A stretch of DNA of 64,000 bases from contig JAFTBM010000022.1 in the NCBI GenBank assembly GCA_017455205.1, positions 1 to 64,000 on the forward strand, read 5' to 3'. Positions 35,997 to 43,646 of this stretch are shown here, one piece after another. The position numbers were made by a program, and so were the translations under genes. How positions within the stretch are numbered: the first letter of the stretch is position 1; each line of letters begins with the position of its first letter. The notes under the pieces are model-generated. The model was not told the origin of the DNA and did not search any database. It worked only from the letters and a program-made list of their open reading frames with translations. The DNA comes from Bacteroidales bacterium (GTDB lineage: Bacteria > Bacteroidota > Bacteroidia > Bacteroidales > P3).

Positions 35997-36494
35997 ATGA
36001 AACGCCTGCTCCTCCTCTTGCCATGGGTGCTGCTCGGCGGCTGCTCCGGCGGCTACTCCTTCACCGGTGCCTCCATACCCGTAGGGGCAAAAACCATCTC
36101 CGTAGCCACCTTCCCCAACTATGCAGCCACCGTCAACCCACAGCTCAGCCAAAAACTGACCGACGAGCTCATGCGGATGTTCTCCTCGCAGACCCCACTC
36201 ATCGTTACCACCAGCGAGGGCGACCTGCAGGTCGGCGGCGAAATCACCGCCTACGACACCCGTGCCTCCTCCCTCTCCAGCAGCGACGAAGTCTCCATGA
36301 ACCGACTGACCATCACCATCAAAGTCAAGTTCGTCAATTCCCTCGACCCCGAAGCCGACTTCGAGCAGCAGTTCTCGCGCTACCGCGACTATGCCGCCTC
36401 GCAGGACTTCTCCACCGTCGAATCCTCCCTCATGGAAGAAATCGTTACCGAACTATGCGAGGACATCTTCAACAAGGCCGTCGTCAACTGGTAG
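35997..36494 (+). CDS. lptE: LptE family LPS-assembly lipoprotein
   Basis: 165 residues. Lipoprotein signal MKRLLLLLPWVLLGGC, then YSFTGASIPVGAKTISVATFPNYAATVNPQLSQKLTDELMRMF, the standard opening of Bacteroidota LptE, followed by strands and a terminal helix (LMEEIVTELCEDIFNKAVVNW). LptE plugs the LptD barrel that inserts lipopolysaccharide in the outer membrane. The next gene probably starts inside it. Confidence 0.87.
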   Translation: MKRLLLLLPWVLLGGCSGGYSFTGASIPVGAKTISVATFPNYAATVNPQLSQKLTDELMRMFSSQTPLIVTTSEGDLQVGGEITAYDTRASSLSSSDEVSMNRLTITIKVKFVNSLDPEADFEQQFSRYRDYAASQDFSTVESSLMEEIVTELCEDIFNKAVVNW

Positions 36495-38705: not shown

Positions 38706-40865
38706 ATGAAAATACGCGCACTACTGGCAATGGTAGCACTATCGCTGCTGATGCCGACAATGGCTTGGGCCGACGAGGGCATGTGGTTGCTCTCGCTGGT
38801 GGGAAAGAACTACAACGACATGCAGCGGGCAGGCTTCAAGCTGATGCCCGAGGATGTGTATAGCATCAATCAGGGATGCCTGAAAGATGCCATCGTGGGG
38901 CTTGGCAATGCTGGGAGCCCGTTTTGGCACTTCTGCACAGGCGAAATCATCTCTACGCAAGGGCTGGTCAGCACCAACCACCACTGCGGCTACGGGCAGT
39001 TGCAGAAGCATTCGACCGTGGAGCACGACTACCTGCGCGATGGCTTTTGGGCCTACTCGAAAGACCAGGAACTTCCCAATCCGGGGCTGACGGCTTCGAT
39101 CCTGGTGCGCATGGAGGATGTTACCGACCAAGTGAAGGCCACCCTCAACGACGACATGAGCGAGGCCGACCGCGAGGCGGCCATCAAGCAGGTGGGCGAA
39201 GAGATAGCCAGCAAGGCCGTGGAGGGAACGCAATATGATGCCAAGGTAATACCGATGTTCAACGGCAACCAGTTCTTCCTTTTTGTGCACATCATCTACA
39301 AGGATGTGCGCTTGGTGGGAGCGCCGCCCTCGTCGATGGGTAAATTCGGTGGCGACACCGACAACTGGTCGTGGCCTCGCCACACGTGCGACTTTTCCAT
39401 GTTCCGCATCTACACTGCTCCCGATGGCAGTCCAGCCGAATACAGCGAGGACAACGTGCCGCTGGTGCCGAAGTACCACCTGCGCGTCAGTGCTGGCGAG
39501 CTGAACGACGGCGATTATGCCATGGTGATGGGGTTCCCCGGGTCGACCGACCGCTTCTTGACCAGCTACGGCTTGGAGGAAACTATCGACATCACCAATA
39601 AGCTTCGCCACGAGATACGGACTGTGAAAATCAACATCCTGCGTGAGCGGATGGCCGCCGACCAGGCCACGCGTATCAAGTACGCCTCCAAGTATGCCAG
39701 CTGCTCCAACTACTGGAAATACAGCGGCGAGCAAAACAAGGCTTTGGTGGCACTCAACACTATGGGCGTCAAGCAAGACATAGAGCGCGAATATACCGAC
39801 TGGGCACGGGGACATGCACCGAAATACAGCCGTGCGCTGGAACTCATCAAGGAGGGTTATGCCGCTCGGCGCGAGAGCCAAAGCGCGATGATGTACGTGC
39901 TGGAAGGCCTACTGACAGGTCCCGAGGCGCTGCTCTTCTCCTGCCGACTGGGCAACAGCTTCCTGCGCACTATGGGCGATGCCAAGGATGACGACCTCTC
40001 GCGCTTCGAGGGCTACGCTGCCAACTACTTCAAGGACTACGACGCGGAGGTCGACCGTCAGCTGGCAGCGGCACTATTCGCCTACGTCTACGAGCATATC
40101 AACCCGATGCAATGCCCCGCATTCCTGCGCGAGGCTCACAAAAAGTATAAAGGCAACTGGGATAAATACGTGGCCGAGCTTTACGGCAAAAGCATATTTG
40201 CCAGCGAAGAGGCACTGACCAAATTCATGCAGAAGCCGAATCGAAAACAGGTGGAACGCGACCCCCTGTTCAAGGCGGGGAGCGCGGCCATGGAGGCTTA
40301 TCAAGCACTCTATAAAGCCACCCCACAGGCCACGAGAGACAACCTCGAGCGCGGCATACGCGACTTCACCGACGGCATCCTGCAAATCAACGCAGGTCAG
40401 AAGTTCCTGGCTCCCGATGCCAACTCAACCATCCGCTTCACCTATGGCAACGTGAAGAGCTACGACCCGCGCGACGGCGTAACCTACAAGCACTACACCA
40501 CAATGAAAGGTGTCATCGAAAAAGAAGACTCCACGAGCACAGAGTTCTACGTACCCGACCGCTTGAAGAGGCTCTACGCCGATGGACGTTTCGGCTCCTA
40601 TGCCGACAAGAACGGCCAGCTGCCCACCTGCTTCATCACCAACAACGACATCACGGGTGGCAATAGTGGCTCGCCCGTCATCAACGCCAACGGCCACCTC
40701 ATCGGCTTGGCATTCGACGGCAACGGCGAGGCCATGAGCGGCGACATCGACTTCGAGGAGAACCTGCAACGCTGCATCTGCCTCGACAGCCGCTACATGC
40801 TTTGGGTGATCGACGTCTATGCCGGTGCCCACAACCTAATCGAGGAAATCGACATTGTGAGGTAG
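38706..40865 (+). CDS. S46 family dipeptidyl-peptidase, DPP7-type
   Basis: 719 residues with a signal peptide (ALLAMVALSLLMPTMAWA). The chymotrypsin-like triad is visible: His in TNHHCGYG (92/93), Asp229 in RHTCDFSMFR and Ser654 in GGNSGSPV. The residue 18 after the Ser, which sets P1 preference, is Gly (FDGN, residue 672) as in DPP7 and not Arg as in DPP11, so broad hydrophobic P1 cleavage is expected. These periplasmic enzymes supply dipeptides to amino-acid-fermenting Bacteroidota. Five bases separate its stop from rpoN. Confidence 0.92.
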   Translation: MKIRALLAMVALSLLMPTMAWADEGMWLLSLVGKNYNDMQRAGFKLMPEDVYSINQGCLKDAIVGLGNAGSPFWHFCTGEIISTQGLVSTNHHCGYGQLQKHSTVEHDYLRDGFWAYSKDQELPNPGLTASILVRMEDVTDQVKATLNDDMSEADREAAIKQVGEEIASKAVEGTQYDAKVIPMFNGNQFFLFVHIIYKDVRLVGAPPSSMGKFGGDTDNWSWPRHTCDFSMFRIYTAPDGSPAEYSEDNVPLVPKYHLRVSAGELNDGDYAMVMGFPGSTDRFLTSYGLEETIDITNKLRHEIRTVKINILRERMAADQATRIKYASKYASCSNYWKYSGEQNKALVALNTMGVKQDIEREYTDWARGHAPKYSRALELIKEGYAARRESQSAMMYVLEGLLTGPEALLFSCRLGNSFLRTMGDAKDDDLSRFEGYAANYFKDYDAEVDRQLAAALFAYVYEHINPMQCPAFLREAHKKYKGNWDKYVAELYGKSIFASEEALTKFMQKPNRKQVERDPLFKAGSAAMEAYQALYKATPQATRDNLERGIRDFTDGILQINAGQKFLAPDANSTIRFTYGNVKSYDPRDGVTYKHYTTMKGVIEKEDSTSTEFYVPDRLKRLYADGRFGSYADKNGQLPTCFITNNDITGGNSGSPVINANGHLIGLAFDGNGEAMSGDIDFEENLQRCICLDSRYMLWVIDVYAGAHNLIEEIDIVR

Positions 40866-40870
40866 GTGCG

Positions 40871-43162
40871 GTGAAGCAACTCCAGCGACAGCAACTGCAA
40901 CAGAAACTCTCGCCTCAACAGATACAGTTGATGCGGCTGCTGCAGTTGCCCGTCACCGACCTCGAAATGGCCATCAAAGAAGAGGTGGAGCGCAATCCAC
41001 TGCTTGAGGCCACGCCGCCCGAAGAGCAGCCCCTGCCGCAGGAGGAAATCGGGGGCGACGAGTGGGAAAGGGGCGACGAGGCAGCGGAGGAAGAGTACGA
41101 CTACCGCGAGCGAAGCGAGCGCGACCCCAACGCGGTGAGGCGCGAATTTGTGGTGAGCGACACCCCTTCGGGTACGGAAAGGCTGCTGCAACAACTCTCA
41201 CTACTGAAAATCAGCGAGAGGCAGCAGGCGATAGCCGTCGAAATAGTGGGCAGCCTCGATGATGCTGGCTACCTCACCCGCAGCCTCGACCTGATTGCCA
41301 ACGACCTCGCTTTCCGCCGTGGAATTGAGGCCAGCGATGCCGAGATGGCAGAAGCACTGCACACAGTGCAAAGCCTTGACCCCGCAGGCGTAGGGGCGCG
41401 CAGCCTGCAAGAATGCCTCACCCTGCAGCTGGAACGCATCTCAAGCCACCGCGATGACCCAATCCTCACCATCGCCCGCACCATTGTGGCTCACCATTTC
41501 GACAACTTCGCCTGCCGCCGCTACACACCTATACTCACTGCCTTGAAAATCGACCAGCAGCAGCTCGAGCAGGCCATGCAACTCATCCGCAGCCTCAATC
41601 CCAAACCCGCTGGAAGCGAAAGTGAAAGTGAGGCCGCAGCTTATATCACCCCCGACATCGTGGTGGAGCAGCGGGAAGGAAAATTGCAGTTCTACCTCAA
41701 CGATGGCCACCTACCCTCGCTCAGCCTCAACCCCTACTACACCGCAATGCTTCACGACCTGGAGCAACAGCATAGCGACAAGAAGACGCTGCAATTTCTC
41801 CGCACCAAGCAGGGCGAGGCGCAATCGTTTATCGACCTTCTGGGTCAGCGCGGCGAGACCATGCGGCGCGTGATGCGCTACATAGTGCAGCACCAGGAGC
41901 AATACCTCCTCACTGGCGACCCCGACCAGTTGCAGCCTATGCGCCAGCGCGAAGTGGCCGAAGCCACGGGGCTGGACATCAGCACCATATCGCGCATGGC
42001 AAATAGCAAATACCTTCAGACCGACTTCGGCACTATCCCCCTCAAAGAATGCTTTTCGAAAGGGATGGCCACCGAAGATGGCGAGGTTGCAGTGGAGGCC
42101 ATCAAGCAGCGGCTGTCGGAGGCTGTGGAGAGCGAGGATAAACATTCACCGCTTTCCGACGATGCCCTGATGCGCATACTCAACGCACAGGGAATGCCAC
42201 TGGCACGGCGCACGGTGGCCAAATACCGCGAGCAGCTGGGCATCCCCACAGCTCGTCTGCGGCGGATATTGCTGTTGGTGCTGCTTGTGATAGGAGCCAG
42301 TCAAAGTAGGGCACAGATGTCGTACTACGATAGCCTTATTGCCGTGCGATTGGAGGCTGCCTCTAAAAGCCAATCTGCCCCGAAAGTCAGTCCTTCTCCC
42401 GCCGCGAAGTCTGCGGTTTCCCCCAAGCCCTCTGCTCCGAAGCCGCATAAGGCCGCCGCAGTACACAGCAAGGCAGAGCCAAGCAGCACTGCCGAGGCTG
42501 CGCCCGACACTGGCATCTGCCGTATATGGTACGACGCATTCCCTCGCCATCGGGTCAATCCGCTCGGACGGACACAACTGGACATGATGCCCGATGAGAT
42601 CAACCTAATGCTGGTACGCGACAGCTCGGAGTTTTGCTTCCCCGTGCGCAATGCCAAGACGAGCAATTATGGCTGGCGGTGGAACAGAGGGCACCACGGG
42701 GTAGACATACGCTTGCGCACGGGCGACTCGGTGCAGGCTGCATTCGGTGGCATAGTGCGCGTGGCATCTCGCATGGGCGGCTATGGCAACTGCGTGGTGA
42801 TCAGACATCCCAATGGGTTGGAGACCCTCTACGGCCACCTGTCGAAAATCAACGTAAAGCATGGACAACGCGTGGCAGTGGGCGAGGTGATAGGTCTGGG
42901 TGGCAGCACGGGCAACTCCACTGGGCCACATCTCCACTTCGAATGCCGCTTTCTCTACCAAACCTTCGACCCTGAATGGATACTGGATTTCAACACGTAT
43001 AGCCTTCGCACCCGCCGCCTGCACCTCGACAAAAGCTACTTCGGAATCAGGCGTCCGCGCACAAAGGATGCCACAGCCTACAAGGCCGATGAAAGCTATG
43101 TCCGCGAGAGCAAGAAACGGAGAAAAACGACCGCCACAACCATCAGTACCAAAGACTTTTGA
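40871..43162 (+). CDS. rpoN: Fusion of sigma-54 factor (RpoN) with a secreted M23 murein peptidase
   Basis: 763 residues from GTG 40871. Residues 1-465 are a complete RpoN: activator-binding region (LQQKLSPQQIQLMRLLQLP), core-binding domain (SLDPAGVGARSLQECL), helix-turn-helix (QREVAEATGLDISTISRMAN) and RpoN box ARRTVAKYREQLGI. With no stop, GIPTARLRR runs into ILLLVLLVIGASQSRAQ, a textbook signal peptide, then an M23 LytM domain (GHHGVDIRL; GPHLHFE). In most genomes these are separate genes. Either a true membrane-tethered fusion is made, or the peptidase starts internally at a TTG or GTG (42269-42280). Which product exists cannot be told from sequence. Confidence 0.85.
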   Translation: MKQLQRQQLQQKLSPQQIQLMRLLQLPVTDLEMAIKEEVERNPLLEATPPEEQPLPQEEIGGDEWERGDEAAEEEYDYRERSERDPNAVRREFVVSDTPSGTERLLQQLSLLKISERQQAIAVEIVGSLDDAGYLTRSLDLIANDLAFRRGIEASDAEMAEALHTVQSLDPAGVGARSLQECLTLQLERISSHRDDPILTIARTIVAHHFDNFACRRYTPILTALKIDQQQLEQAMQLIRSLNPKPAGSESESEAAAYITPDIVVEQREGKLQFYLNDGHLPSLSLNPYYTAMLHDLEQQHSDKKTLQFLRTKQGEAQSFIDLLGQRGETMRRVMRYIVQHQEQYLLTGDPDQLQPMRQREVAEATGLDISTISRMANSKYLQTDFGTIPLKECFSKGMATEDGEVAVEAIKQRLSEAVESEDKHSPLSDDALMRILNAQGMPLARRTVAKYREQLGIPTARLRRILLLVLLVIGASQSRAQMSYYDSLIAVRLEAASKSQSAPKVSPSPAAKSAVSPKPSAPKPHKAAAVHSKAEPSSTAEAAPDTGICRIWYDAFPRHRVNPLGRTQLDMMPDEINLMLVRDSSEFCFPVRNAKTSNYGWRWNRGHHGVDIRLRTGDSVQAAFGGIVRVASRMGGYGNCVVIRHPNGLETLYGHLSKINVKHGQRVAVGEVIGLGGSTGNSTGPHLHFECRFLYQTFDPEWILDFNTYSLRTRRLHLDKSYFGIRRPRTKDATAYKADESYVRESKKRRKTTATTISTKDF

Positions 43163-43163
43163 T

Positions 43164-43646
43164 ATGAAAAAGACCAATCTTTCCGACTACGACCCAGCGG
43201 CTGTCCCCGATGGTGCCGACTATCGTATTGCCGTAGTGGCAGCCGAGTGGAATCCCGAAATCACCGATGCCATGCTGCAAGGTGCCGTGGAGACGCTTGC
43301 CGAGCATGGAGTGAAAGATATCATCGTCAAGCGTGTGCCAGGCACATTCGAGCTCACCTATGCAGCCAGCAAGTTGCTCTCCGTGCGGGAAGATATTGAT
43401 GCCGTGATATGCATCGGCTGCGTCATCCAAGGCGAGACGCGCCACTTCGAGTTTATCTGCCAAGCAGTGTCGCAAGGCATCAGCAACGTGGCCATCAAAT
43501 ATGAAAAACCAGTGATATTTAGCGTCCTCACTTGCGACACCCTGCAGCAGGCCCTCGACCGTGCAGGTGGCAAGCATGGCAACAAAGGGGTGGAGGGAGC
43601 CATCACTGCATTGAAGATGTGTAAATTCACCAGCGAATGCGAGTAG
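43164..43646 (+). CDS. ribH: 6,7-dimethyl-8-ribityllumazine synthase
   Basis: 160 residues from MKKTNLSDYDPAAV, one base after the previous stop. Lumazine synthase motifs: AEWNPEIT, VPGTFELTYAA, GCVIQGETRHFEF with the catalytic His, KPVIFSVLTCDTLQQALDRAGG and a C-terminal helix. It makes the direct precursor of riboflavin; ribE is in the same window at 62.3 kb, not in an operon with it. It overlaps fmt by 10 bp. Confidence 0.95.
   Translation: MKKTNLSDYDPAAVPDGADYRIAVVAAEWNPEITDAMLQGAVETLAEHGVKDIIVKRVPGTFELTYAASKLLSVREDIDAVICIGCVIQGETRHFEFICQAVSQGISNVAIKYEKPVIFSVLTCDTLQQALDRAGGKHGNKGVEGAITALKMCKFTSECE

What the first reader, a model, noticed from the sequence alone, without database searches (positions are those of the whole stretch)
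40871..43162. Sigma-54 fused in frame to a secreted M23 murein peptidase
One uninterrupted frame holds a complete RpoN (ending in the RpoN box and ARLRR at residue 465) followed at once by a signal-peptide-like segment ILLLVLLVIGA-SQSRAQ and a full M23 domain with GHHGVD and HLH zinc motifs. The basic end of RpoN doubles as the n-region of the signal peptide. If translated as one chain, sigma-54 would be tethered to the inner membrane with a peptidoglycan hydrolase outside, linking wall status to sigma-54 transcription. If signal peptidase cuts it, both parts are released to different compartments from one message. An internal TTG or GTG start (42269-42280) is a third option.
Basis: partly seen in the sequence, partly recalled or inferred. 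Interest (0 to 1): 0.88.

Follow-up and report, generated by a model that had tools for sequence, protein, structure and literature searches.

The report
Sigma-54 fused to exported wall enzyme
In a group of uncultured gut bacteria, many of them from ruminants, the only sigma-54 gene found runs without a stop codon into the gene for a predicted secreted cell-wall-cutting enzyme, so this transcription factor would be made attached to an export signal, which possibly ties stress-gene control to protein export.

Summary
Window 40871-43162 is one open frame of 763 codons: a complete sigma-54, then at sigma-54's natural end (ARLRR) a signal peptide with a Bacteroidota-type A|Q cleavage site, then an M23 domain. 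It is not an assembly error: the frame is unbroken in 85 of 116 rpoN-bearing genomes of the genus (29 have two separate frames, 2 have no M23 there) and in 43 of 51 named MAG loci. Another genus of the family has rpoN-stop-M23, so the fusion looks derived. Q follows the predicted cut in 85 of 85, M23 catalytic residues are kept, and both halves are under purifying selection (pN/pS 0.13 and 0.10). No start codon at the junction is shared by all. It is the genome's only rpoN hit; sigma-54-type promoters precede htpG in 21 of 21 fused genomes where htpG was found. Whether this regulates anything is untested.

The parts
40871..42265 (+). rpoN half, residues 1-465: complete sigma-54 (AID 2-46, core-binding 94-290, DNA-binding 308-465, RpoN box 445-453)
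   Evidence: Pfam and NCBIfam; structure comparison with solved sigma-54
42254..42313 (+). internal signal peptide, residues 462-481 (RLRR, hydrophobic core, A at -1)
   Evidence: sequence; R462, R464 and Q482 invariant in a 41-row alignment; pattern in 85 fused genomes
42314..42316 (+). Gln482, predicted new N-terminus after signal peptidase I (Q-rule)
   Evidence: Q at this place in 85 of 85 fused genomes; Q-rule from PMC5837995
42215..42217 (+). GTG (Val449, RpoN box): the best candidate for an additional internal start; not required and not universal
   Evidence: GTG in 68 of 83 Val codons at this place
42314..42688 (+). low-complexity linker between signal peptide and M23, residues 482-606
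   Evidence: mostly pLDDT below 50; pN/pS 0.30
42689..42973 (+). M23 peptidase domain, residues 607-701 (H608, D612, H656, H687, H689)
   Evidence: Pfam; residues invariant in the 41-row alignment; LytM fold
38706..40865 (+). S46 dipeptidyl peptidase gene (Dpp7-like), ends 5 bases before the rpoN start; possible operon neighbour
   Evidence: ORF and Pfam
43164..43640 (+). ribH (lumazine synthase), starts one base after the fusion stop; the order rpoN-M23-ribH is seen in relatives
   Evidence: Pfam; order in L024, L027, L031 and L227

Best explanation
The only sigma-54 gene found in this genome reads without a stop into an M23 peptidoglycan-hydrolase gene through a predicted internal signal peptide, and its product is predicted to be a polyprotein whose hydrolase half is exported and cut off by signal peptidase I while the sigma-54 half likely stays at the inner membrane on its leftover signal peptide. 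Shown: the unbroken frame and its conservation, complete domains, the invariant basic/hydrophobic/Q pattern, selection on both halves, and sigma-54-type promoters before chaperone and protease genes. Inferred: translation as one chain (no stop offers an exit), N-in/C-out insertion by Sec, and the cut at A|Q. Further inferred and untested: release of sigma-54 by an RseP-type site-2 protease, or escape of uncut chains when export is blocked, so that the amount of free sigma-54 for the htpG/lon/clp genes would report on the envelope or on export.
For: One uninterrupted frame in 85 of 116 genus genomes with rpoN and 43 of 51 named loci. Basic RR/RK in 85 of 85 and the acidic residue of the usual LRKEL tail lost in 84 of 85. 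Small residue then Q after the hydrophobic core in 85 of 85: A|Q 77, S|Q 5, G|Q 3, against a mean of 71% Q for Bacteroidetes signal peptidase I substrates (PMC5837995 section 16). M23 zinc/catalytic residues in 85 of 85 (81 by pattern, 4 by reading the printed sequences). pN/pS 0.13 (sigma-54) and 0.10 (M23) over 15 close pairs, synonymous change at the junction not reduced. One PF04552 match in the own genome. Exact TGGCAY-N5-TTG upstream of htpG in 22 of 24 genomes where htpG was found, against 0 of 91 upstream of rpoN and 0 of 38 upstream of ribH. One M50 protease gene.
Against: No expression, protein or localisation data. GTG in the RpoN box is enriched in fused genomes (68 seen, 42.2 expected), so an additional internal start is not excluded. 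The hydrophobic core is not stronger than in relatives with separate genes (median 2.73 against 2.62, P 0.30), so no adaptation to an internal position shows there. G013 and G077, which lie near fused rows on the tree, lack M23 and have a stop after rpoN, so sigma-54 can do without it. Coupling to export is inference only.
Confidence: 0.55

Rival explanations
1. Dual initiation: M23 is mainly made from an internal start (most likely GTG 42215 in the RpoN box, which would give an n-region ending in RLRR), and the full-length chain is a by-product that is trimmed.
For: GTG at this Val in 68 of 83, against 42.2 expected from each gene's own usage. Several separate-gene relatives overlap by ATGA (5 of 29), so coupled starts existed nearby.
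Against: 17 of 85 lack GTG there. No ATG in codons 0-25 from the box in 41 of 85; no ATG, GTG or TTG in codons 0-20 in 4 of 85. 18 of 28 separate-gene genomes have GTG at the same codon, and another Val column reaches 0.77 GTG. Shine-Dalgarno-like words in the junction in 8 of 85 fused against 10 of 30 unfused. Synonymous sites there are not conserved. Without a stop, sigma-54 would still be read into M23.
Confidence: 0.15
2. The join has no regulatory meaning: a stop was lost between coupled genes, the chain is cut by housekeeping proteases, and sigma-54 works as usual with a harmless tail.
For: Separate, adjacent genes are common in relatives (29 of 116) and M23 was lost in G013 and G077. 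The same promoter type stands before htpG in at least one separate-gene genome (1 of 3 exact, 2 with one mismatch).
Against: The fusion is kept across very diverged species (down to 47-50% identity), with few changes of state on the trees (5 and 3), and with the same junction pattern throughout.
Confidence: 0.3
3. Stable tether: the chain is not cut, and sigma-54 acts as a membrane-anchored regulator with a periplasmic M23 domain, in the manner of CadC or ToxR.
For: The single helix predicted across the junction (461-477) would permit insertion in the membrane.
Against: A cleavage site with Q at +1 follows the core in 85 of 85, and the segment from RR to the cut is 12-21 residues in 83 of 85, as in signal peptides.
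Confidence: 0.08
4. Artefact: a sequencing or assembly error removed a stop codon.
For: None found.
Against: 85 of 116 genus genomes and 43 of 51 named loci from several MAG projects share the junction.
Confidence: 0.01

Closest known systems
Sigma-54 of Bacteroidota, e.g. the SM4 promoters of Flavobacterium psychrophilum (PMC9723704; passages and section 15 part 1 read)
   Same: Complete sigma-54, -24/-12 promoters, and target classes (HtpG and Lon in both)
   Different: The sigma-54 examples read in other Bacteroidales genomes end shortly after the RpoN box; here the chain runs on into a signal peptide and an M23 enzyme. PorU is listed under another motif (SM6) in that paper.
M23 (LytM) endopeptidases such as ShyA, DipM, Csd1/Csd2
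   Same: M23 fold and zinc motif
   Different: Those chains begin with their own signal; here a whole sigma factor precedes it.
Anti-sigma factors RsiV and RsiP cut by signal peptidase and then the site-2 protease RasP (PMC8844934 passages read; PMC4183432 listing only)
   Same: Signal peptidase as site-1 protease in sigma factor control
   Different: There the anti-sigma factor is cut; here the sigma factor itself carries the site, and the second step is only proposed.
ATFS-1, a stress transcription factor with a mitochondrial import signal (PMC5835775, listing and start of abstract only; mechanism recalled)
   Same: A stress regulator with a transport signal, so failed transport could activate it
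   Different: Eukaryotic, not a sigma factor; the parallel is a hypothesis here.
Bradyrhizobium cytochrome b/c1 polyprotein (recalled; the search found no paper on it)
   Same: A bacterial chain with an internal signal cut by signal peptidase
   Different: Two respiratory subunits, no regulator.

Membership tests
Sigma-54 (RpoN) | AID, core-binding and DNA-binding domains | tested here: met
   PF00309, PF04963, PF04552 above cut-off; TIGR02395 410.5 bits, cut-off 277.35
Sigma-54 (RpoN) | RpoN box ARRTVAKYR | tested here: met
   present in the window; A, R, R, T in 85 of 85, V in 83, A in 82, K in 82, Y and R in 85 of 85 fused
Sigma-54 (RpoN) | an activator (PF00158) in the genome | tested here: met
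   one strong gene with AAA+ and HTH_8
Sigma-54 (RpoN) | -24/-12 promoters | tested here: met
   htpG upstream 22 of 24 exact; controls 0 of 91 and 0 of 38; by sequence only
M23 peptidase | HxxxD, H and HxH residues | tested here: met
   H608, D612, H656, H687, H689; 85 of 85 fused
M23 peptidase | cleaves peptidoglycan | not testable with these tools
   needs an assay
Bacteroidota signal peptidase I substrate | basic n-region, hydrophobic core, small residue then Q | tested here: met
   85 of 85 fused
Bacteroidota signal peptidase I substrate | signal at the N-terminus of the chain | tested here: not met
   the signal lies behind 465 residues of sigma-54 unless an internal start is used
Regulator freed by regulated intramembrane proteolysis | cut by site-1 and site-2 proteases | not testable with these tools
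   only the site and one M50 gene were seen
CadC/ToxR-type tethered one-component regulator | DNA-binding domain with a lasting membrane anchor | tested here: inconclusive
   the core is followed by a cleavage site, which speaks against a lasting anchor, but processing was not measured

The most novel reading that the evidence does not exclude
A bacterial export-failure sensor: the cell's only sigma-54, which serves a proteostasis regulon (htpG, lon, a Clp ATPase), carries its own export cargo. While Sec and signal peptidase run, the hydrolase is exported and sigma-54 is held at the membrane; when export stalls, uncut chains stay in the cytoplasm, or the remnant is cut loose, and chaperones and proteases are switched on. 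The activator has no recognisable sensor domain, so the sigma factor itself would be the sensor, as ATFS-1 is for mitochondrial import.
Probability: 0.2. Interest if true: 0.96.

Novelty: new variant of a known kind. Interest (0 to 1): 0.88.

Why it matters
I know of no other sigma factor encoded as one chain with an exported enzyme, and the four library searches aimed at such fusions listed no paper on one; most subscription journals are not in that library. Here it is the only rpoN found in the genome, and 85 species-level genomes of one genus share it. If the chain is made as the sequence says, sigma-54 becomes a membrane-targeted protein in these bacteria. That would couple envelope export physically to the sigma-54 stress regulon, and it makes testable how Bacteroidota sense the need for that regulon, since the activator found here has no recognisable sensor domain.

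Tried and rejected
Assembly artefact: rejected.

Conserved internal start: not found. No ATG in codons 0-25 from the RpoN box in 41 of 85, and no junction codon column is a start codon in all 85. GTG enrichment in the RpoN box is real but not universal, so it is kept as a rival.

Frameshift exit to free sigma-54: an in-frame slippery heptamer in only 2 of 85.

Stronger hydrophobic core after fusion: tested, negative.

Fusion elsewhere in the order: one search covered 295 genomes, but its match table is cut; no other fusion was seen in the rows listed. The 712-aa frame of G385 was read and is an open frame extended upstream; its RpoN ends VARLRKFL-stop.

PorU as a shared target: a site in only 7 of 30, and in F. 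psychrophilum PorU is under another motif, so it is not claimed.

Number of fusion events: 5 changes of state on the sigma-54 tree and 3 on the M23 tree, both quick trees with many unsure branches. G011 and G078 stand apart on the sigma-54 tree, so one origin with losses and two or three origins are both possible.

Rows left out or weak: four of 120 genus genomes (G003, G032, G062, G143) gave no rpoN hit and are not in the 116; all four still have the activator, so rpoN may be missing from the assembly. G120 (rpoN frame disturbed near its end) and G132 (contig starts inside rpoN) are counted among the 29 separate but left out of the M23 tree; G104 is left out. The column open_frame_aa runs across stops between same-frame neighbours, so it was not used as evidence of fusion.

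Recalled, from no call: the sigma-54 promoter consensus used as search pattern, the meaning of the M23 motifs, Sec topology rules, hydropathy scales, CadC/ToxR, the Bradyrhizobium polyprotein.

Full report

It is not an error. PF04552 matches once in the own genome. In 120 genus genomes searched with the fusion, 116 gave an rpoN; reading their DNA (and earlier loci) gave 85 with sigma-54 and M23 in one uninterrupted frame, 29 with separate frames and 2 without M23 in the stretch read. Of 51 named loci from a scan of public genome contigs, 43 are fused and 8 are not; the titles are uncultured Bacteroidales or Bacteroidetes MAGs, and 15 of the 43 fused titles name a ruminant. A protein search scored with the M23 half found 1415 proteins; the 120 listed all carry PF04552 and PF01551, and where a name is shown it is RNA polymerase sigma-54 factor.

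How it arose. Another genus of the same family (L227) has rpoN ending in a stop, then M23 with its own start and signal peptide, then ribH and fmt; its two other genomes were not read. The order rpoN-M23-ribH as separate genes was also read in three separate-gene genomes, and 5 of 29 separate pairs overlap by ATGA. In 8 more distant Bacteroidales loci the M23 frame opens 692-992 bases behind rpoN. So two neighbours seem to have fused by loss of the stop. Quick trees need 5 (sigma-54) or 3 (M23) changes of state. In G013 and G077 rpoN ends in a stop and is followed directly by ribH.

The junction. In 85 of 85 fused genomes the RpoN box is followed at a fixed distance by R-R (77) or R-K (8). The residue after it, acidic in the usual LRKEL tail, is acidic in only 1 of 85. 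A small residue followed by Q ends the hydrophobic core in 85 of 85 (A|Q 77, S|Q 5, G|Q 3). My first, stricter pattern for the -3 position matched 46 of 85. Bacteroidetes signal peptidase I substrates have Q there in 71% on average (PMC5837995 section 16). Signal-like composition is otherwise the same as in separate relatives. Over 15 close fused pairs (one genome used twice) pN/pS is 0.13 for sigma-54, 0.10 for M23, 0.32 for tail plus signal and 0.30 for the linker; synonymous change is 0.46 at the junction against 0.42 in sigma-54, so no extra nucleotide-level constraint is seen there.

Internal start or other exits. 41 of 85 have no ATG in codons 0-25 from the RpoN box, 52 of 85 none in codons 0-20, and 4 of 85 no ATG, GTG or TTG in codons 0-20. 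GTG at the Val of the box occurs in 68 of 83 against 42.2 expected; the six Val columns examined range from 0.43 to 0.82 GTG; in unfused genus members it is 18 of 28. An additional internal start is therefore possible in many species but not shared by all, and it would not spare sigma-54 from being read into M23. An in-frame slippery heptamer occurs in 2 of 85.

Is this sigma-54 in use? One strong activator gene lies in the genome (408 aa; AAA+ domain from residue 12, Fis-type HTH at 365-405, so no room for a receiver domain; GAFTGA in the sequence). 109 of 119 genus genomes have a match at E below 1e-40, 98 of them exactly one. TGGCAY-N5-TTG occurs 140 times in the genome against 23 for the reversed pattern; in 105 loci read, 19 sites passed a simple filter for lying before an ATG-started frame, not all of them credible. 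Those before htpG, lon, a Clp ATPase gene and mrp were confirmed as such genes by Pfam. For htpG, found in 24 of 30 genomes searched, the exact site stands upstream in 22 of 24: 21 of 21 fused, 1 of 3 separate, the other two with one mismatch. The same pattern stands in 0 of 91 regions upstream of rpoN, 0 of 38 upstream of ribH and 7 of 30 around the start of the porU-like gene. In F. psychrophilum sigma-54 promoters precede GroES/EL, Lon, DnaK, GrpE-DnaJ, HtpG, Skp and ClpB (PMC9723704 section 15 part 1), and a promoter survey also reports chaperones in the Bacteroidota sigma-54 regulon (PMC12316311 passages). So the fused factor very likely still serves a protein-quality regulon.

Mechanism. 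By general Sec rules (recalled), a hydrophobic segment behind a positively charged cytoplasmic domain inserts N-in/C-out and signal peptidase I cuts outside. The hydrolase would leave into the periplasm; sigma-54 would keep residues 466-481 in the membrane. Freeing it would need a site-2 protease; one M50 gene exists. Signal peptidase followed by a site-2 protease is known for anti-sigma factors (PMC8844934 passages). Alternatively uncut chains in the cytoplasm are the active form, which would make sigma-54 a reporter of failed export. Neither is tested, and a join without regulatory meaning stays a serious rival (0.3).

Literature. The searches aimed at such a fusion listed no paper on one. 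Other searches served the Q-rule, proteolysis, the sigma-54 regulon and analogues.

Noticed in passing
L232-L255 (htpG loci), L346 (lon), L304 (Clp ATPase), L223 (mrp): Sigma-54-type -24/-12 sites before proteostasis genes: htpG in 22 of 24 genomes; lon, a Clp ATPase gene and mrp in the own genome. Sigma-54 looks like a protein-quality sigma factor in these Bacteroidales.
   Followed up: partly
L190:1468-2694: The genome's one strong sigma-54 activator has no sensor domain and lies beside what looks like dnaG, whereas in F. psychrophilum an activator gene is listed together with lptE (PMC9723704); the window has an lptE-like gene at 35997-36494.
   Followed up: no
window 42974-43162: The window's fusion ends in a basic tail (KKRRKTTATTISTKDF); 21 of 85 fused chains end in a LysM-like IRVR end instead.
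   Followed up: no
L228, L229: G013 and G077 have rpoN with a stop followed directly by ribH; the M23 gene is gone there.
   Followed up: partly
G003, G032, G062, G143: Four genus genomes without an rpoN hit keep the sigma-54 activator, so rpoN is either lost or missing from the assembly.
   Followed up: no
L214-L216, L224: TGGCACCGAGGTTGC recurs several times inside open frames of contigs 15 and 50, probably a repeated coding motif rather than promoters.
   Followed up: no
L186 (G120): The rpoN frame is disturbed within the DNA-binding domain, possibly a sequencing error.
   Followed up: no
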